Positions 51,166 to 58,645 of a stretch of 64,000 nucleotides of DNA are shown in pieces. The DNA lies in NCBI RefSeq assembly GCF_021732705.1, contig NZ_JAKFUM010000006.1:100198-164197 (forward strand), given 5' to 3'. This DNA is from Nevskia sp. GTDB lineage: Bacteria > Pseudomonadota > Gammaproteobacteria > Nevskiales > Nevskiaceae. Made by a program: the position numbers and the translations under genes. The notes beneath the pieces are model-generated. The model did not search any database, was not told the origin of the DNA, and saw nothing but the letters and a program-made list of their open reading frames with translations. The first letter of the stretch is position 1; every line of letters starts with the position of its first letter.

Positions 51166-52299
51166 TCAGCACAGACCGAGGAAGCGCAGGATGCAGCCGT
51201 TGCCGCCGGTCAGCGGCGCCAGCAGCGCATTCAGCAAGCTCTGCAGCGCGCCGATGGCGGCCGTCAGCGGCGACTGGCCGGCGGTGCCGGCGAGGCCGGT
51301 CGGCAGGGCCGCCACCAGCTGCGTGACGAGACCGCTGATCGCCGAGAAGCCGGTGCCACCGAGCGGATTGGCCGGAAGCGGCACGGTCGGGCTGGTGCCG
51401 AGGCTGGCCGTCAGCGTGGCCACCGCGCTCTGGATCGTCTGCACGAGATTGGCGATCGCGGTGCCGCCGGCAGTGTTCTGCAGCACGCCGACCGGCAGCA
51501 CGCGGGTCAGGACGTCGGTCAGCACGCTCTGGGCCAGCGCCTGGAAGCCGGCCGCGAGGGTCGTCGGCGAGGCACCGGCAACCGCCGCGTTGGCGAGCGC
51601 GCTCAGGTTGGTCAGCGCGTTGCCGACCGTCACCAGCGTGCCGCCGACGACGGGCGCGCCGGTGACGTTGCTCGGCAACTGGGCCAGCGCCTGATTGAAC
51701 GCCGTGCTCAGCGTCGACAGGATCGTGGCGAGCTGCACCGCGGTGATCGGTGGCGCGCTGCCGTTGAGACTGGCGGTGAGCTGCTGCGCGGCGGAGGTCA
51801 GCGGCGGCAGCAGCGCGGCACCGATTGGGGCCAGCGGCGTGCCGGCCAGCGGGTTGCTGGTCGGCACGGTCGCGACACCGCCGCTGGTGCCGAGGCAGGC
51901 CAGCGCGCCGTTGTTCAGGGTCGTCAGCAGGCCGGACAGGTTGCTCAGCAGCGCGGCCAGCGCCGCCTGTGCCTGCGCCGGCGTGGTGACGATCAGCTGC
52001 GTCGGCGACGCGAGGCCGTTGGCAAAGGCATCGGCGATGTCGAGTACGTTCTGCGTGACCACCGAGTTGCCGCACAGCAGTACGCCCTGCAGCGGCGTGT
52101 TGGCCGTGGCGGTGACCAGCGGCGAGATCACGCTGGTGGTGACGGCGGCCTGGACGGTGTCGAGCGGGCCGACGACGGTCGGCGACGACTGCGGCGTCGG
52201 ACCGGTGCCGGCCGGCGAGGGGCTCGGGCCGCCGCTGCCGCCGCAGCCAGCGGCGAGCACGGTGGCGAAGACGAGGGCACAGCGGGTCTTGTTGAACAT
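51166..52299 (-). CDS. putative lipoprotein, Ala/Leu/Thr-rich
   Basis: A 377-residue protein. The start at 52299 (GGGAG upstream) gives a lipoprotein signal with L-A-A-G-C, lipidated Cys at residue 19, then a Gly/Ser/Pro linker. The mature part is a low-complexity, mostly helical sequence with recurring L-x-x-L and A-x-x-A patterns and T-x-P spacers, ending in G-N-G-C-I-L-R-F-L-G-L-C. No enzyme motif or named family is seen. It may be a surface or envelope-spacer protein. It has its own terminator. Confidence 0.7.
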   Translation of the reverse strand: MFNKTRCALVFATVLAAGCGGSGGPSPSPAGTGPTPQSSPTVVGPLDTVQAAVTTSVISPLVTATANTPLQGVLLCGNSVVTQNVLDIADAFANGLASPTQLIVTTPAQAQAALAALLSNLSGLLTTLNNGALACLGTSGGVATVPTSNPLAGTPLAPIGAALLPPLTSAAQQLTASLNGSAPPITAVQLATILSTLSTAFNQALAQLPSNVTGAPVVGGTLVTVGNALTNLSALANAAVAGASPTTLAAGFQALAQSVLTDVLTRVLPVGVLQNTAGGTAIANLVQTIQSAVATLTASLGTSPTVPLPANPLGGTGFSAISGLVTQLVAALPTGLAGTAGQSPLTAAIGALQSLLNALLAPLTGGNGCILRFLGLC

Positions 52300-52860
52300 G
52301 GGAACTCCCGGATCCTGTAGGTGAAGACATGCGACGAGCGCACCGCGGTGGTGCGTCACGCCGCGAAACCTACCGATGGCGACCTCTGAATCCACAGATC
52401 GCCGATGGAAGGACAGGAATCCGCGGTGGGTGGAACGGCTTCAGAATCCATGCCGGACAGCCGGTCGAAAGCACGCTGCAGCATCCTCGTGCCACGCGGT
52501 CGGCACGAGGCGTCAAGCCCCTGTTCCGTCGTTGCCGCCAGGCCGCCGCGCGGTCTGGTCATCGCCATTCCAGACGATGAAACGCGAGTCTTCATGAAGG
52601 CGTTCATGAAGAAATTCATGTATCGCTCATCAAGCGCCGAGCGTTGCTTGGTACGCGCAGGGCACGCCGTGAAGCCACCCGCGCGGTGATGGCGCACGGC
52701 CGGCCACGACCCTTCCGAACAAAGTCTCACGCCGCTGCCACGCGCGCGAAAATGTCATGAGAAACGCCGTATCGGGGGCCTGAAATTCCGACATGATGAC
52801 GGCGGCAGCTTGTCGATCCAGCGCCATACGAATGTGTCCGCACACCGGTTCGGGGGAACC
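52300..52860. other. 561-nt intergenic region with TTCATGAA repeats
   Basis: Divergent region between the lipoprotein gene and the lipoxygenase-like gene. TTCATGAA occurs at 52591-52598 and 52603-52610, and TTCATG at 52615-52620, spaced 12 bp apart. Other frames here have no ribosome-binding site or family resemblance. I see no RNA gene. Confidence 0.55.
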
Positions 52861-54433
52861 ATGTCAACCGTCTCGTCGTTCAAGCAGCGTGCTTTTCCAC
52901 TGCCGCGCAGCGCCTTCCGCTACGGCCGCACGGGCCCATGGCCGCAGCCGGCTGCCGACCAGCCGATGTACATGGCGGCCGAGGTCATGCATCTGCCCAA
53001 GGCCGAGCAGAGGCACTGGAACTGGACGGTGCGCATCAACTATTTCAAGGCGATGCTGACCAAGCTGCCGCTGGCGCTCTACAACTGGTTCATCCACAAC
53101 CGCATCGATCACGCGACCGACGCCGAATGCGCGTGGATGCTGACCACGACCTGCTATGCGAAATACCTGCGGCGGCGCACGGCCGCGCAACTGGCGGGCA
53201 GCAACTTCGAGCAACACCTCGGCCTGCGATCCGAAACGGGACTATCTGATTTCCGATTTCACGACCATGCAGGATCTCGATCCGTACCCGGGCATGCATG
53301 TCGCGCCGACGGTCGTGCTGTTCGGTCGCGTGGCCGCCGGCAAGGCGTACGAACTGCTGGCGATCTCGATCGGCCATCTGCAGGATGATCGCTGGCAGCA
53401 TCTGGTGATGACGCCGGCCGATGGTCACGCCTGGACGCTCGCCAAGTACTACGCGATCCAGGGGGCTGCGCACATGACCTCGCTGTCCGGGCACCCAGCG
53501 ACGCATTTCCCGTACGACACGGTCAACGCGATCACGGTCAGCGCGATTCCGACAGCGCACACGCTGTTCAAGCTGCTCGAGCCGCATCTGGAACTGCATC
53601 TGGCGGTCGACCACGCGGTGCTCGAAGGCGGCAGTTCGATCGTCAGCGAACGGCACGGCGAGTTCTACGCGCCCTACGTCTGCAATGGCACCAACATCCG
53701 GCAACTGGTGCCGACCGGGTACATCGGCTATCCGAATCCGCTGTCGAAGTACGCGCCGTCGAACGAGCCGGGACCGAACTACAAGCCGTGGACCTATCCG
53801 ACGGCCGCGCCGGACATCCCGTCCGACTACGGCCGCTTCCTGGCCGAGTACTACGACACCGTTCGCGGCTATGTCCGGGAGGTGGTGGCGCACATCGCAG
53901 CGCTCGGAGACACGCGACAGGGCGAGGAAGAGCGCTACTACATCCAGCGCTGGGCGCACTACATCGCGCAGGTGCTGCCCGGGTTTCCGGACGAGCATGT
54001 GATCCTCGCGCCAGGCGGCGATGGTGATCCGTACCCGAACCTGGTGCTGGCGTTGACGACCTACATCTGGGACGTCGCCATTGCCCACGGGCTCGAGCAC
54101 AACTCGTATTACAAGCTCGGGCCGCATCGCACCGACTTCCGCATCCGGATTCCGCCGCCGTCATCGCGCGCCATTCCGGCGTTCGCGCGCAAGGATGTGC
54201 TGCACGGCTGGGATCTGTTCAAGTCGACCCTGGCCTTCGAGATGTTCTTCCGGCCCCTCATCGTCACCCACCTGCTCGACGCGCAATACCACTTCGAGAC
54301 GCCGGCACTGCGCGCGGCCGCCGAGCGCTTCAAGCAGGCGCTGCGCGTCACCGAGCAGCGGCTGGCGGACGAAGGTGTCAATCTTGACCAGTACGCGCGC
54401 CTCCACGAACTCGCCAGCAGCATCCAGTATTGA
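52861..54433 (+). pseudogene. lipoxygenase-like gene interrupted by one frameshift
   Basis: Two overlapping plus-strand frames together give a lipoxygenase-like protein of about 523 residues. The first runs from the ATG at 52861 to about 53226; the second begins near 53230 (D-P-K-R-D-Y-L-I-S-D-F). One surplus base lies between 53220 and 53232. Lipoxygenase features are W-T-L-A-K-Y-Y-A-I-Q, a His-rich A-A-H-M-T-S-L-S-G-H-P-A-T-H, the I-P-T-A-H-T-L-F-K-L-L-E-P-H helix and a late W-D-V-A-I-A-H-G-L-E-H-N with candidate iron ligands. Members oxygenate polyunsaturated fatty acids. It could be a pseudogene, a sequencing error or a recoded gene. The stop is 4 nt before the cyclase ATG. Confidence 0.65.
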
Positions 54434-54437
54434 CGGC

Positions 54438-57400
54438 ATGAGCACCTCGACCGACGAATTCACCGCGCTGCTGGCCCGTGTGACCGCTGCGCTGGAAGCC
54501 GAGCAGCGCATCTCGTATCGCGGCCTGAAGCGCCGCTTCGGGCTGACCAACGACGACATCGACGATGTCAAGGACGAGCTGATCCACGCGCGCCGCGTCG
54601 CCGATGACGAGAACGGCATCGTGCTGGTCTGGCGCAAGCCGGCTGCGACGGCGGCCACGTCCGCTCCGGCCGCAGGACGCATGGCCACGTACACGCCGCG
54701 CTTTCTCGCCGACAAGATCCTGTCGATGCGCTCGGTCATCGAAGGCGAACGCAAGCAGGTCACCGTGCTGTTCTGCGATACCGCGAACTCGACCGCGCTG
54801 GCCGAGCGTCTCGGGCCCGAGATCTGGCACGAGACGATGAACGCCTTCTTCGCCGGCCTGACCGAAGCCGTGCATCAGCTCGAAGGCACGGTCAACCAGT
54901 TCACCGGCGATGGCGCCATCGCGCTGTTCGGCGCGCCGGTGGCGCATGAGGATCACGCCTATCGCGCGTGCATGGCCGCGCTGCGCCTGCGTGATGCCAC
55001 GGCGACGCTCGATGCCCGGCTCGAAGCCGAATACGGGCTACGCTTCAGCATCCGCGTCGGCCTCAACTCCGGTGAAGTGGTGGTCGGCACCATCGGCGAC
55101 GACCTGCGCATGGACTACACCGCGCAGGGTCATGTCGTGGTGATCGCCGCGCGGCTGGAAGCGCTCGCCAGCGGCGACCGCATCCTGATGTCCGAGCACT
55201 GCCATCGTCAGGTGCGCGGCATGTGCGAGGTGCGCTCGATCGGCAGCCCGACGCTCAAGGGCGTGGTCGAACCGATCGAGGTGTTCGAGCTGGTATCGGC
55301 GCGGACCAGCGCCAATCGCTTCGACAATTCCCGTTCGCGCGGGCTGACCCGCTTCGTCGGTCGCGATCCGGAACTTGCGGTGCTCGAAAGCGCGCTGGCG
55401 CGCGCGCGGGCGGGCGAGGGCATCGTGCTCGGTGTCGTCGCCGAAGCCGGCACCGGCAAGAGCCGGCTGTTCCACGAGTTCATCGCGTCCTGCCGTGCGC
55501 GCGGCATGACCGTGCATCTCGGCCGCGCCGTGTCGCACGGCGCCAACATTCCGTACCTGCCGATGCTGCAGGTGTTTCGCAGTCACTACGGCATCGACGA
55601 GCACGAAGACCCGGTCAGCGCCCGCGACAAGATCACTGGCAGGCTGATGCGCCTCGGCGCCGAGTTCATCGACTACGCGCCGCTGGTCTGCGAACTGCTC
55701 GGCGTGGCCGATCCGGCACTGCCGCCGGTGCAGATCGATCCGGATGCCAAGCAGCGTCGCCTGTTCGAGCTGCTGCGGCGCCTGATTCAGGGTGCCGATC
55801 CGATGTCGGGCTCGGTGATCACCTGCTTCGAGGACCTGCACTGGATGGACCCCGCCAGCGAGCGCTTCCTCGAGGAATGGGTCGAAGCGCAGGCCGGCAG
55901 CAACCGGCTGCTGCTGCTGAACTTCCGCCCGGGCTATCACGCGGAGTGGATGAAGAAGCCGTACTACGAGCAGATGTCGCTGTCGCCATTGGGTCCGGAA
56001 GCGGTCGGCGCGATGCTGACCGACCTGATCGGCAACGACCCGACCACGGCCGGCCTGGCCGAAGACATCTTCCGTCGCAGCGGCGGCAATCCGTTCTTCT
56101 GCGAGGAAATCGTGCAGTCGCTGCGCGAGTCGGGCGATCTGGTCATGGCGCCGGCGCGCATCGAGTTGCGGCAGCCGCTCACTGCGCTGCGCATCCCGGC
56201 CTCGGTGCAGTCGATCCTCGCGTCGCGTATCGATCGCCTGCCGGACGCGGAGAAATCGGTCCTGCAGATCGCTGCAGTCATCGGCCGCGAGTTCGCGCCG
56301 GCGCTGGTCCGGCATGTGATGGATCTGTCGACCGACATCTTCGACGGCCTGATCGATCGCCTGCGCGACGGCGAGTTCGTGTTCGAGACCCGTGAAGGCA
56401 ACGAGGTGCGGCTGAGCTTCAAGCACGCGCTGACGCAGGAGGTGGCGATCAACTCGCAGCTCCGCGACAAGCGCCGCCTGACCCACATGATGGTCGCGCA
56501 GGGGATCGAAAGCCTGTACGCGACGCGTCTGGGCGAGATGGCCAGCCTGCGCGCCTGGCACTGGCAGCAGGCCGGCGAGGCGCTGAAGGCAGCGCTCGCG
56601 TACGGCGAAGCGGCCGTGCACATCCGCAGCGGCAACCGTATCCAGCAGCTGGAATACATCCGCAAGGCGCTGGAGCTGACCGCGCCGCTCGCCGCCAGCC
56701 CGCCGCGTCAGCAACTGCGGCTGCAGTGTCTGGTCGAGCTGATCGTCGGCGGCGCGTGGCGCTTCAGCATGACCGACGGCGAACTCGAAGTGCTGTGCAA
56801 CGAGGCGCGCGAACTGGCCGAAGCTTTCGGCATGAAGGAACTGGCGCTGATGATCCGCGCCGGCCGCGCGGCAGCGAGCGGCATGATGGCGGGCGACATT
56901 CGCGCGTGGACCCACGCCATCGAAACGCTGGCCGGGCAGTGCCGGGATGCGGCGCCGGAAGTCAGCGGCACGATCATCGGCCAGTACTCGTATGCGCTGT
57001 ACATCAGCGGCCGGCCGCGCGAGGGCCGGGTCTTTGCCGAGCAGAGCCACGCGATGTGCAACGACGATCCACGCTTCGGTCTGGCAATGGGCTACAGCGT
57101 GCTCGGCGCGATGCAGAACTGCCTGGGCCTGCTGTACACCAGCCTCGGCCTGCTCGACGAGGCGCGCGCGATCTACGCCCGGGCGCTGGTGATGCTGCCG
57201 GCAGCCGGGATCATCGAGGAACTGCTGTGGAATCAGGCCAATCAGTCGGAATCGGAACTGCCGCGCGGCCTGCCGCCCGACGATCCCGCCGTCCTGCATT
57301 CGGTGGCGCTGTCATCGGCCGCGATCGAGCGGGCCGAGCAGGTCGCCAGCGATTTCACGCGGGGCGTCGCGAAGCGGGCGTGGGTGGTCGCGCTGCTGAT

Positions 57401-57893
57401 GCAGCAGCGTTACGACGAAGCCGTGCTGGCCGCGACCGACTGCCTGGCCCACCTGCGCGCGCGTCGGGCACATCTGGAGGTTGAAGCGCGCTGCCTGTCA
57501 TACCTCGCCGATGCACTGCGCGGCGTCGGCCGACATGCCGAAGCACGGGTCGCGGCCGACGAAGCCGTGGCCTGCAGCCGCGAGCGCGGGGCACGCTATT
57601 TCGAAGCGTGTGCGCTGCTGTGCGTCGGGCGTTGCGAGATTGCCGAAGCCGGCGCCAGGCCGGACGCCGCACGTGAAGCCACGGCGCGACAGGCCTTCGA
57701 GCAGGCACTGGCGCTGGCTCGCGAGATTGGCGCCGCCGCGCTCGAACCGCAGATCGTCGAAGCGCTGGCCGACCAGTCCGCCCGCCTCGGCGATGCCGCA
57801 GCCGCGCTGGCCGGACGGCGCGAAGCGCTCGCGGGCTACCGTGCGGTCAATGCCAGCGGCCATGCCGCGCGTCTGGCGGCGGTGCTGGGCTGA
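54438..57893 (+). CDS. class III cyclase-like / AAA ATPase / TPR signalling protein
   Basis: A 1151-residue protein. A short helical N-terminal domain (about 5-70) precedes a class III nucleotide cyclase domain (about 105-290) with metal-binding Asp in F-C-D-T-A-N-S-T (about 112) and G-D-G-A-I-A-L-F (about 157). In the usual G-D-x-V-N-x-A-A-R motif the Asp and Asn are replaced (H-V-V-V-I-A-A-R-L), so cyclase activity is doubtful. Next is a STAND/AAA_16-type ATPase: Walker A A-G-T-G-K-S (about 338), F-E-D-L-H-W-M-D. The last 450 residues are helical repeats of TPR type. It forms an operon with the lipoxygenase-like gene. Confidence 0.85.
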   Translation: MSTSTDEFTALLARVTAALEAEQRISYRGLKRRFGLTNDDIDDVKDELIHARRVADDENGIVLVWRKPAATAATSAPAAGRMATYTPRFLADKILSMRSVIEGERKQVTVLFCDTANSTALAERLGPEIWHETMNAFFAGLTEAVHQLEGTVNQFTGDGAIALFGAPVAHEDHAYRACMAALRLRDATATLDARLEAEYGLRFSIRVGLNSGEVVVGTIGDDLRMDYTAQGHVVVIAARLEALASGDRILMSEHCHRQVRGMCEVRSIGSPTLKGVVEPIEVFELVSARTSANRFDNSRSRGLTRFVGRDPELAVLESALARARAGEGIVLGVVAEAGTGKSRLFHEFIASCRARGMTVHLGRAVSHGANIPYLPMLQVFRSHYGIDEHEDPVSARDKITGRLMRLGAEFIDYAPLVCELLGVADPALPPVQIDPDAKQRRLFELLRRLIQGADPMSGSVITCFEDLHWMDPASERFLEEWVEAQAGSNRLLLLNFRPGYHAEWMKKPYYEQMSLSPLGPEAVGAMLTDLIGNDPTTAGLAEDIFRRSGGNPFFCEEIVQSLRESGDLVMAPARIELRQPLTALRIPASVQSILASRIDRLPDAEKSVLQIAAVIGREFAPALVRHVMDLSTDIFDGLIDRLRDGEFVFETREGNEVRLSFKHALTQEVAINSQLRDKRRLTHMMVAQGIESLYATRLGEMASLRAWHWQQAGEALKAALAYGEAAVHIRSGNRIQQLEYIRKALELTAPLAASPPRQQLRLQCLVELIVGGAWRFSMTDGELEVLCNEARELAEAFGMKELALMIRAGRAAASGMMAGDIRAWTHAIETLAGQCRDAAPEVSGTIIGQYSYALYISGRPREGRVFAEQSHAMCNDDPRFGLAMGYSVLGAMQNCLGLLYTSLGLLDEARAIYARALVMLPAAGIIEELLWNQANQSESELPRGLPPDDPAVLHSVALSSAAIERAEQVASDFTRGVAKRAWVVALLMQQRYDEAVLAATDCLAHLRARRAHLEVEARCLSYLADALRGVGRHAEARVAADEAVACSRERGARYFEACALLCVGRCEIAEAGARPDAAREATARQAFEQALALAREIGAAALEPQIVEALADQSARLGDAAAALAGRREALAGYRAVNASGHAARLAAVLG

Positions 57894-57917: not shown

Positions 57918-58400
57918 CTAGTCGCGGAAGTTCTCGAACTGCAGCGGCACCTCGAGGTCGGCCTTCTTCAGGAACGCGATGGTCAGTTGCAGATCGTCGC
58001 GCTTCTTCGAGTTCACGCGCAGCTTCTCGCCGTTGATCTGGCAGTCGACCTTGAGTTTGGCTTCCTTGATCTTGGCGATGATCTTCTTCGCCTGTGCCTG
58101 TTCCAGCCCCTGCTTGATGGTGATCGCGCGGCGCGAGCCGGCGAGGTTGGTCAGCACATCGCCGACCTCGACCGCGCGCAGGTCGATGTGGCGGCCGGCA
58201 AGGCGGATCTTCAGCATTTCCAGCAGTTGGTCGAGCTGGTGCTCGGTCGGCGCGTACTGCGTGATGACGTTGTCTTCCAGCTCGAACCGGGCGTCGGTGC
58301 CGCGCAGGTCGTAGCGGTTGCCGAGATCGCGGCTGGCCTGATCGACGGCATTGGTCAGTTCGTGCTTGTCGACTTCGGAAACGGCGTCGAAGGAGGGCAT
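57918..58400 (-). CDS. yajQ: YajQ family nucleotide (c-di-GMP)-binding protein
   Basis: A 160-residue protein of the YajQ/UPF0234 family. The start at 58400 gives the canonical M-P-S-F-D-A-V-S-E-V, followed by N-A-V-D-Q-A-S-R-D-L-G-N-R-Y-D. The end D-L-E-V-P-L-Q-F-E-N-F-R-D is also canonical. In Xanthomonas the homologue binds cyclic di-GMP and acts with a transcription factor. Length is typical. It stands alone, convergent with the cyclase gene. Confidence 0.95.
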   Translation of the reverse strand: MPSFDAVSEVDKHELTNAVDQASRDLGNRYDLRGTDARFELEDNVITQYAPTEHQLDQLLEMLKIRLAGRHIDLRAVEVGDVLTNLAGSRRAITIKQGLEQAQAKKIIAKIKEAKLKVDCQINGEKLRVNSKKRDDLQLTIAFLKKADLEVPLQFENFRD

Positions 58401-58645
58401 GGGAGTTCCTGTTGCGGATTCGGGTGGCGCGATTCTGCCGCGTTTGGACCGGGAAATGCGTGCCTCGCGCGGCGTGGCGAGCGGCGCCTGCGGCCACGCA
58501 GCGGCCGAGCGTCCCGCGCAGTCGGCGATGGCCACGATGACGCTCGCCATTTCCGCGTGCACCGGCGCCGCCATCTGACGGCGTGGCTTGCGCTGCGCGA
58601 AAGTCGGACACTGTCGGACCGACCGACTGAACCGCACCGCAAGCC

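What the first reader, a model, noticed from the sequence alone, without database searches (positions are those of the whole stretch)
52861..57893. Lipoxygenase-like enzyme paired with a cyclase/ATPase/TPR protein
The two genes are 4 nt apart and alone in their transcription unit. The large protein has a cyclase-type domain whose substrate and transition-state residues are altered (H-V-V-V-I instead of D-x-V-N-x), a STAND-type ATPase and TPR repeats, like a sensor-scaffold. A possible system is lipid oxidation sensed or controlled by the multidomain partner.
Basis: partly seen in the sequence, partly recalled or inferred. Interest (0 to 1): 0.56.

Follow-up and report, generated by a model that had tools for sequence, protein, structure and literature searches.

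The report
Lipoxygenase-like enzyme paired with nucleotide cyclase
In several bacterial genera an unusual relative of lipid-oxidising enzymes sits beside a gene for a cyclase-type signalling protein, which suggests that lipid oxidation and cyclic-nucleotide signalling are wired together there; in the genome examined here the enzyme gene itself is broken by a frame shift or by an assembly error.

Summary
(1) The window's lipoxygenase-like gene is not one open frame: it changes frame near 53.23 kb and is two nucleotides shorter there than intact homologues. Ka/Ks of about 0.16-0.17 on both sides against L002 suggests a recent break or an assembly error. (2) It belongs to a divergent family: lipoxygenase fold (Z 26), but H-x3-H instead of H-x4-H in 7 of 7 aligned members.

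Eight searches (1748 genome look-ups, overlapping) gave 8 carrier genomes. In 7 of 8 a class III cyclase gene is the immediate neighbour, in three architectures: cyclase-ATPase-TPR, 7TMR-DISM-cyclase, kinase-ATPase-GAF-cyclase. In one genome that neighbour is the only PF00211 match; the eighth genome has none. One locus adds a transporter with a cyclic-nucleotide-binding domain.

The altered transition-state residue is confirmed (V/A/A/G in 4 of 4 paired proteins of the window type), but an active cyclase with Ala there is published, so inactivity does not follow. Function is untested.

The parts
52861..54433 (+). lipoxygenase-like gene, frame-disrupted in this assembly (about 53.23 kb); intact in L001 and L002
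   Evidence: intact homologues
53492..53506 (+). H-P-A-T-H, first pair of predicted iron ligands, spaced H-x3-H (canonical H-x4-H)
54086..54100 (+). H-G-L-E-H, second pair of predicted iron ligands (H-x3-H; canonical H-x3-N/H)
54419..54433 (+). C-terminal S-I-Q-Y and stop; the terminal carboxylate is the predicted fifth ligand
   Evidence: ligand role recalled for lipoxygenases
54438..57893 (+). cyclase / AAA_16 ATPase / TPR protein, 1151 aa, intact
54750..55262 (+). class III cyclase domain (PF00211), residues 105-275; both metal Asp and Arg kept, Lys position Gln
55140..55142 (+). codon for Val235 at the transition-state Asn position
   Evidence: residue 235
55350..55913 (+). AAA_16 (STAND-type) ATPase domain with Walker A (55440-55463) and Walker B-like motif (55821-55844)
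   Evidence: motif names recalled
57117..57584 (+). TPR-like repeats, residues about 894-1049, weak (below Pfam cut-off)

Best explanation
The two genes form one signalling module. The first encodes an oxygenase of lipoxygenase fold, probably cytosolic (no signal peptide seen by eye), of a divergent family with altered iron-ligand spacing. The second encodes a STAND-type ATPase with a class III cyclase-fold domain and TPR-like repeats. Most likely the oxygenase's activity (its oxidised lipid product, or its own ligand- or redox-dependent state) is the input that the partner reads through its repeat/ATPase part, and the output is a change in cyclic-nucleotide level. In other lineages the same oxygenase family is joined to a membrane receptor-type cyclase or to a kinase-ATPase-GAF-cyclase, and once to a transporter with a cyclic-nucleotide-binding domain, so the constant element is oxygenase plus cyclase. 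Shown: adjacency, co-inheritance, domain content, predicted fold, purifying selection. Inferred: enzyme activity, lipid substrate, physical or signalling contact, direction. My separate estimates: functional linkage 0.85; oxygenase upstream of the cyclase 0.5; window-type cyclase domain still catalytic 0.5.
For: Immediate class III cyclase neighbour in 7 of 8 carrier genomes, three architectures. Junctions: 4 nt (window), 0 nt (L001, L002), 61 nt (G121), 7 nt overlap (G190), 34 nt in G771 if the ATG there is the start, divergent with 195 nt between in G655. PF00211 matches are few: 8, 3, 4, 8, 3, 5, 1 in G000, G014, G005, G121, G190, G655, G771; in G771 the only one is the neighbour. Rough chance per genome 0.0005-0.005, assuming 0.93 gene per kb. 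Window-type partners form one clade (100/99 and 100/100) that includes G121 and excludes 18 and 17 unpaired relatives; partners at 87-100% identity occur only in the 3 of 58 family genomes that have the oxygenase. In L001 the flanking genes tested in window and L002 are not found, so the pair is kept or moved as a unit. Ka/Ks 0.12-0.25 for both genes. Lipoxygenase fold: Z 26.4, 3.5-3.6 A over 462-463 residues, aligned to the last residue. SulP-STAS-cNMP_binding gene next to the oxygenase in G655; an oxygenase fragment near a cNMP-binding gene in G190.
Against: G1016 carries the oxygenase with no cyclase beside it and no PF00211 match in its genome, so the oxygenase can occur alone. The window's own oxygenase gene is frame-disrupted and the G121 copy has an in-frame TAG, so 2 of 8 copies look broken (both are draft assemblies). 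The window-type cyclase domain has lost Asn, and an unpaired G121 relative has lost it too. The confident AF2 model used an alignment with 5 canonical lipoxygenases among 12 rows; without them confidence was poor (pLDDT 52). Members are few and several loci share descent, so there are about three independent events, and the chance figure was made after seeing the pattern.
Confidence: 0.5

Rival explanations
1. Reverse direction: the cyclase protein is the sensor and the oxygenase is its output; the cyclase protein (via cyclic nucleotide or by direct contact) switches oxygenase expression or activity, and the oxidised lipid is the effector or an extracellular signal.
For: Sensor-type domains lie in the partner (7TMR-DISMED2 plus 7TM in G190 and G655; GAF in G771). 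In G655 the two genes are divergent, as in regulator-target pairs.
Against: No cyclic-nucleotide-binding domain was found by Pfam in the oxygenases scanned. In G655 the cNMP-binding domain is on a transporter instead.
Confidence: 0.25
2. One reading: the window-type cyclase domain is dead, the partner is a scaffold or ATPase switch, and the pair has no cyclic-nucleotide output.
For: Asn replaced by V/A/A/G in 4 of 4 paired proteins against N in 14 of 17 unpaired relatives aligned.
Against: Metal Asp pair and Arg kept in 21 of 21; active Ma1120 has Ala at this site (PMC4215837, passages); paired cyclases of the two other architectures keep Asn; an unpaired G121 relative also lacks Asn.
Confidence: 0.15
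3. Defence-type module: a STAND/cyclase alarm that triggers a membrane-damaging lipid oxygenase on phage infection (works like Pycsar or STAND systems).
For: Sporadic distribution (3 of 18 congeners); STAND-type ATPase; PADLOC Pycsar-cyclase models match the cyclase domain (E 4.8e-17) and PD-T4-6 kinase models match the G771 partner.
Against: Such matches are what any class III cyclase or such kinase could give; no PADLOC model matched the two oxygenases scanned; no plasmid or viral-contig relative of the oxygenase was found. Wider neighbourhoods were not scanned for defence genes.
Confidence: 0.07
4. Chance or hitch-hiking neighbours with no functional link.
For: Few members; one member without a cyclase neighbour.
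Against: Three cyclase architectures; low cyclase density in the genomes; pair kept where flanks differ; paired cyclases form their own clade.
Confidence: 0.03

Closest known systems
Canonical lipoxygenases (PF00305), e.g. P. aeruginosa LoxA, CspLOX2, animal ALOX12/15
   Same: Whole catalytic-domain fold (Z 20.5-26.4 in the 50 rows shown), second ligand pair H-x3-H/N, C-terminal position, H-xLFKLL-PH segment.
   Different: 505-550 aa; H-x3-H in 7 of 7 instead of H-x4-H (4 of 5 canonical rows; the fifth, G070, also shows H-x3-H); ends in Y/F, not I; below Pfam cut-off; own clade (100/99); class III cyclase neighbours.
Cyclase-AAA_16-TPR proteins with zinc-ribbon-like N-terminus ('adenylate/guanylate cyclase domain-containing protein')
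   Same: Same cyclase-ATPase order; about 34-47% identity to the window protein.
   Different: The 18 unpaired ones read carry a C-x2-C..C-x2-C-G start (Pfam zinc-ribbon scores below cut-off in the one scanned) and 14 of 17 aligned keep Asn; the 4 paired ones have a different N-terminus of about 70 residues and lack Asn.
TOMM kinase/cyclase fusion protein (TIGR03903)
   Same: Cyclase plus ATPase stretch aligned, E 2.3e-73.
   Different: Score 247.7 against a cut-off of 705.75; no kinase domain matched in the window protein. The G771 partner does have kinase-ATPase-GAF-cyclase.
Oxylipin-dependent quorum sensing (ODS) of P. aeruginosa
   Same: A bacterial fatty-acid oxygenation system whose products are sensed and regulate genes (PMC6377657, start of abstract and passages).
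   Different: Diol synthases (haem enzymes, recalled) and a LysR regulator, OdsR; in the passages seen no lipoxygenase-fold enzyme and no cyclase are part of it.

Membership tests
Lipoxygenase (PF00305 superfamily) | Lipoxygenase catalytic-domain fold | tested here: met
   AF2 model pLDDT 75, pTM 0.79; VIA Z 26.4 over 462-463 residues; Foldseek E 1.2e-11. Caveat: 5 of 12 alignment rows were canonical lipoxygenases.
Lipoxygenase (PF00305 superfamily) | Pfam curated cut-off | tested here: not met
   Cut-off 23.6 bits: no match in 3 of 7 full-length members, 16.6-20.3 bits in 4 of 7.
Lipoxygenase (PF00305 superfamily) | First ligand pair H-x4-H | tested here: not met
   H-x3-H in 7 of 7; a one-residue gap against PDB lipoxygenases in the alignments shown.
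Lipoxygenase (PF00305 superfamily) | Second ligand pair H-x3-H/N and C-terminal carboxylate (Ile) | tested here: inconclusive
   H-x3-H in 7 of 7 and last residue at the canonical position, but Y (6 of 7) or F (1 of 7) instead of Ile.
Lipoxygenase (PF00305 superfamily) | Dioxygenation of polyunsaturated fatty acids | not testable with these tools
   No assay; host substrates unknown.
Class III nucleotide cyclase | Cyclase homology domain | tested here: met
   PF00211 64.6 bits against 21.9; PDB cyclases 2w01 E 4.3e-23 and CyaB 3r5g E 4.5e-22.
Class III nucleotide cyclase | Two metal-binding Asp and transition-state Arg | tested here: met
   Kept in 21 of 21 rows.
Class III nucleotide cyclase | Transition-state Asn | tested here: not met
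   V/A/A/G in 4 of 4 paired proteins; not decisive, since Ma1120 is active with Ala.
Class III nucleotide cyclase | Cyclic nucleotide synthesis | not testable with these tools
   Needs an assay.
STAND ATPase | AAA_16-type NTPase domain with Walker motifs | tested here: met
   AAA_16 72.4 bits against 32.6; Walker A and B-like motifs by eye.
STAND ATPase | C-terminal repeats | tested here: inconclusive
   TPR matches below cut-off in the window copy and in L001.
TOMM kinase/cyclase fusion (TIGR03903) | Score over curated cut-off and kinase domain | tested here: not met
   247.7 against 705.75 bits; no kinase match.
Pycsar | Cyclase with adjacent cyclic-pyrimidine-binding effector | tested here: inconclusive
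   PycC models match the cyclase domain; the adjacent oxygenase matches no PADLOC model; genes beyond the pair were not scanned with PADLOC.

The most novel reading that the evidence does not exclude
A lipoxygenase-like enzyme family with a shifted iron-ligand spacing is a dedicated partner of class III cyclase receptors in bacteria: intracellular lipid oxidation is turned into a cyclic-nucleotide signal, and different bacteria have plugged the same oxygenase into three unrelated cyclase receptors (STAND type, 7TM type, kinase-GAF type). It would be a bacterial analogue of eicosanoid-to-cAMP signalling assembled within one gene cluster.
Probability: 0.3. Interest if true: 0.82.

Novelty: new variant of a known kind. 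Interest (0 to 1): 0.6.

Why it matters
What bacterial lipoxygenases do is open. A 2024 review puts them at not more than 0.5% of sequenced bacteria and says that a role of bacterial oxylipins in multicellular structures is not definitively confirmed (PMC11011848, passages). A repeated genetic link to class III cyclases gives a direct, testable lead: measure cyclic nucleotides with and without the oxygenase. At least one carrier (G190, handle without a name) has a nearly closed genome of 3 contigs, so the arrangement is not only a metagenome-bin artefact. The H-x3-H spacing also asks whether a lipoxygenase fold can work, or sense, with a different iron site.

Tried and rejected
A PF00305 search of the own genome found nothing; this only shows that the Pfam model is too far away. 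A first AF2 job on five family rows gave pLDDT 52 and was not used. Plasmid and viral-contig searches for the oxygenase found nothing. A pattern scan of the species-level genome collection with the window protein, which reaches close relatives only, gave 2 loci, L001 and L002. The idea that Gln for Lys and Thr for Asp are special to the pair was rejected: they are family-wide. I first took the 7TM-type cyclases for guanylyl-cyclase-like at the Lys position; the alignment puts Arg there, so no substrate is assigned. A scan for promoters and terminators gave nothing above chance. Translating L005 in a wrong frame gave nothing.

Papers: searches that could show a lipoxygenase-cyclase link were 0 papers; 1 paper, on epoxyalcohol synthases, seen as listing only; 5 papers, listings only, titles on other subjects; 15 of 669 listed. 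In one search my cyclase term was misspelt, so that search tested nothing of use; two searches were about bacterial lipoxygenases in general; ('HX4H') gave 0 papers. The library holds open-licence PMC papers only, so this is weak evidence of absence.

Rows dropped: of 31 lower-scoring cyclase places only the 17 returned as loci were aligned. Of the genes beside G1016, G1421, G1233 and G070, eight were scanned with Pfam and none has a cyclase domain; the ORFs L046 7472-8212 and L049 4817-5467 were not scanned. G1384's lipoxygenase is cut by the contig end and was left out of alignments.
Full report
What is in the window. The downstream gene is an intact 1151-aa protein (54438-57893, +) with class III cyclase and AAA_16 ATPase domains and TPR matches below cut-off. 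The upstream gene begins at ATG 52861 and stops at 54433, 4 nt before the next ATG. It is not one reading frame: the length is not a multiple of three, and the coding signal passes from one frame to another near 53.23 kb. Two congeners hold intact copies (L001, L002), and the window copy is two nucleotides shorter there. Ka/Ks against L002 is 0.17 before and 0.16 after the break (0.25 for the second part against L001), like the two intact copies with each other (0.21), and 0.12-0.17 for the cyclase. So the gene has been under selection, and the break is recent or an assembly error; I cannot tell which.

What the upstream protein is. Single-sequence searches give only weak lipoxygenase matches (Pfam E 0.59; PDB E 0.0019). 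A profile of seven members matches PDB lipoxygenases at E 4.7e-9; the second half of the catalytic domain aligns in order but is weak by itself in the best hit (7.4 bits), while 3fg4 aligns in one stretch, 145-498. An AF2 model of the L002 protein built on 12 rows (7 family, 5 canonical) has pLDDT 75 and pTM 0.79. All 50 rows shown by Foldseek and all 50 shown by VIA are lipoxygenases (best Z 26.4, 462-463 residues, ending at the terminal residue). The canonical rows may help the model towards that fold; without them the model was poor. In 7 of 7 aligned members the first ligand pair is H-x3-H (HPxxHFP) and the second H-x3-H; the protein ends S-I-Q-Y (6) or S-I-N-F (1); the window copy has the same motifs. 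Canonical rows show H-x4-H in 4 of 5; the fifth (G070) shows H-x3-H. The 7 form a clade of 100/99 support against those 5. I therefore call it lipoxygenase-like: by predicted fold it is built like a lipoxygenase, but it fails one defining ligand feature, and its activity is unknown.

Where the family occurs. Genomes with a match, misses included: 5 of 194 relatives, 3 of 369 class, 2 of 250 family of G190, 6 of 398 phylum, of which 2 (G1039, G1050) are canonical lipoxygenases by Pfam, 1 of 151 family of G771, 1 of 1 order of G121, 4 of 300 order of G190, of which 3 (G1233, G1384, G1421) are canonical by Pfam, 4 of 85 own order, of which 1 (G070) is over the Pfam cut-off. These eight searches make 1748 genome look-ups; the draws overlap. 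Distinct carriers: G000 (window), G005, G014, G121, G190, G655, G771, G1016. Within the own genus it is in 3 of 18. No plasmid or viral-contig relative was found. All carriers lie in one class. Other phyla were reached only by a pattern scan for close relatives of the window protein, which gave L001 and L002, so distant members elsewhere are untested.

What sits beside it. G000, G005 (L001), G014 (L002): cyclase-AAA_16-TPR directly downstream. G121 (L005): the same, 51% identical over the part held, 61 nt downstream; the contig ends inside the partner. G190 (L009): a 7TMR-DISMED2/7TM/cyclase protein upstream whose end overlaps the oxygenase start by 7 nt. G655 (L017): the same type of receptor, divergent, 195 nt away, and downstream a SulP-STAS-cNMP_binding protein. 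G771 (L034): a kinase-AAA_16-GAF-cyclase protein downstream; the mechanical ORF starts inside the oxygenase gene, and the first ATG after it lies 34 nt from the oxygenase stop. G1016 (L035): an RHS protein with an ADP-ribosyltransferase-like end (Pfam Scabin-like), a small gene without a Pfam match, and delta-aminolevulinate dehydratase; no cyclase. So 7 of 8 genomes, 5 of 6 genera, three architectures. PF00211 matches (E up to 0.001) per genome are 8, 4, 3, 8, 3, 5, 1 and 0 in G000, G005, G014, G121, G190, G655, G771 and G1016. With 0.93 gene per kb (assumed), the chance that one of two neighbours is a cyclase is 0.0005-0.005 per genome; this was worked out after the pattern was seen. G190 also has an oxygenase fragment (39 aa, 56% identical) near a cNMP-binding gene and a SulP-STAS-cNMP gene.

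The window-type partner. Proteins at 87-100% identity occur only in the oxygenase carriers (3 of 58 family genomes); 29 more of the 58 hold relatives at 29-47% identity over the matched part, without the oxygenase. In trees of the cyclase/ATPase region the four paired proteins, G121 included, form one side of a branch (100/99 with 18 unpaired rows; 100/100 with 17); long branches are flagged, so the exact root is unsure. Of seven flanking window ORFs tested, two are found beside the pair in L002 and none in L001: the pair is kept or moved as a unit. The 18 unpaired relatives read begin with a zinc-ribbon-like C-x2-C..C-x2-C-G stretch, the 4 paired ones with a different stretch of about 70 residues.

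The altered cyclase site. Both metal Asp, Thr at the second substrate position and the transition-state Arg are kept, and the Lys position is Gln, in 21 of 21 rows, paired or not. The Asn position is V, A, A, G in the four paired rows and N in 14 of 17 unpaired rows (H in 2, S in 1). An unpaired G121 relative has A. In the 7TM-type partners the Lys position is Arg and Asn is kept; in the kinase type the Lys position is Ser and Asn is kept. Ma1120 of Mycobacterium avium is an active adenylyl cyclase with Ala at the Asn site, and putting Asn there lowered its activity (PMC4215837, passages seen). So loss of Asn does not show a dead enzyme.

How it most likely works. The constant elements across lineages are the oxygenase and a class III cyclase protein, the sensor part varies, and a cyclic-nucleotide-binding transporter is joined once. 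The simplest reading is that oxygenase activity feeds a cyclic-nucleotide signal. The reverse (cyclase protein controls oxygenase) is the main rival; a dead-cyclase scaffold, a defence module and chance are less likely. No step beyond adjacency, co-inheritance, domain content, predicted fold and selection is shown.

Relation to what is known. Bacterial lipoxygenases are described as rare, and a role of bacterial oxylipins in multicellular structures as unconfirmed (PMC11011848, passages). Oxylipin signalling in P. aeruginosa uses diol synthases and OdsR (PMC6377657, passages). The paper searches that could show a lipoxygenase-cyclase link listed no paper whose title or abstract start describes one in bacteria; coverage is limited to open-licence papers and, to 15 of 669. 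A side observation: canonical lipoxygenase genes in G1039 and G1384 lie tail to tail with kinase-AAA_16-GAF-GGDEF proteins, and in G1050 beside a GGDEF protein (3 of 6 canonical loci looked at). GGDEF genes can be numerous and their background was not counted, so a wider lipoxygenase-nucleotide-cyclase link is possible but weakly supported.

Noticed in passing
L037 4754-11697 (G1039); L048 1-6231 (G1384): Canonical lipoxygenase genes lie tail to tail with a kinase-AAA_16-GAF-GGDEF giant protein in two different genomes.
   Followed up: partly
L036 4942-8176 (G1050): Canonical lipoxygenase gene divergent from a GGDEF protein.
   Followed up: partly
L018 1527-4836 (G190:C1:68000-78000): Second lipoxygenase-like fragment near a cNMP-binding protein and a SulP-STAS-cNMP_binding transporter.
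   Followed up: partly
L005 (G121:C198), codon 420 of the lipoxygenase-like gene: In-frame TAG between the two His of the second ligand motif; draft contig, could be error or decay.
   Followed up: no
L049 5471-7540 (G070): Another divergent lipoxygenase (81.9 bits PF00305) with H-x3-H spacing and C-terminal SPWN.
   Followed up: no
L035 137-4422 (G1016): The one family member without a cyclase lies next to an RHS protein with a Scabin-like ADP-ribosyltransferase end and a small gene without a Pfam match.
   Followed up: partly
window 51166-52395 (-) and L002 5660-6898 (-): Lipoprotein-like gene without a Pfam match, divergent from the pair in window and L002, not found beside the pair in L001.
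   Followed up: partly
window 57918-58637 (-): DUF520 (YajQ family, name recalled; such proteins are reported, from memory, to bind c-di-GMP) convergent with the cyclase gene, also in L002.
   Followed up: partly
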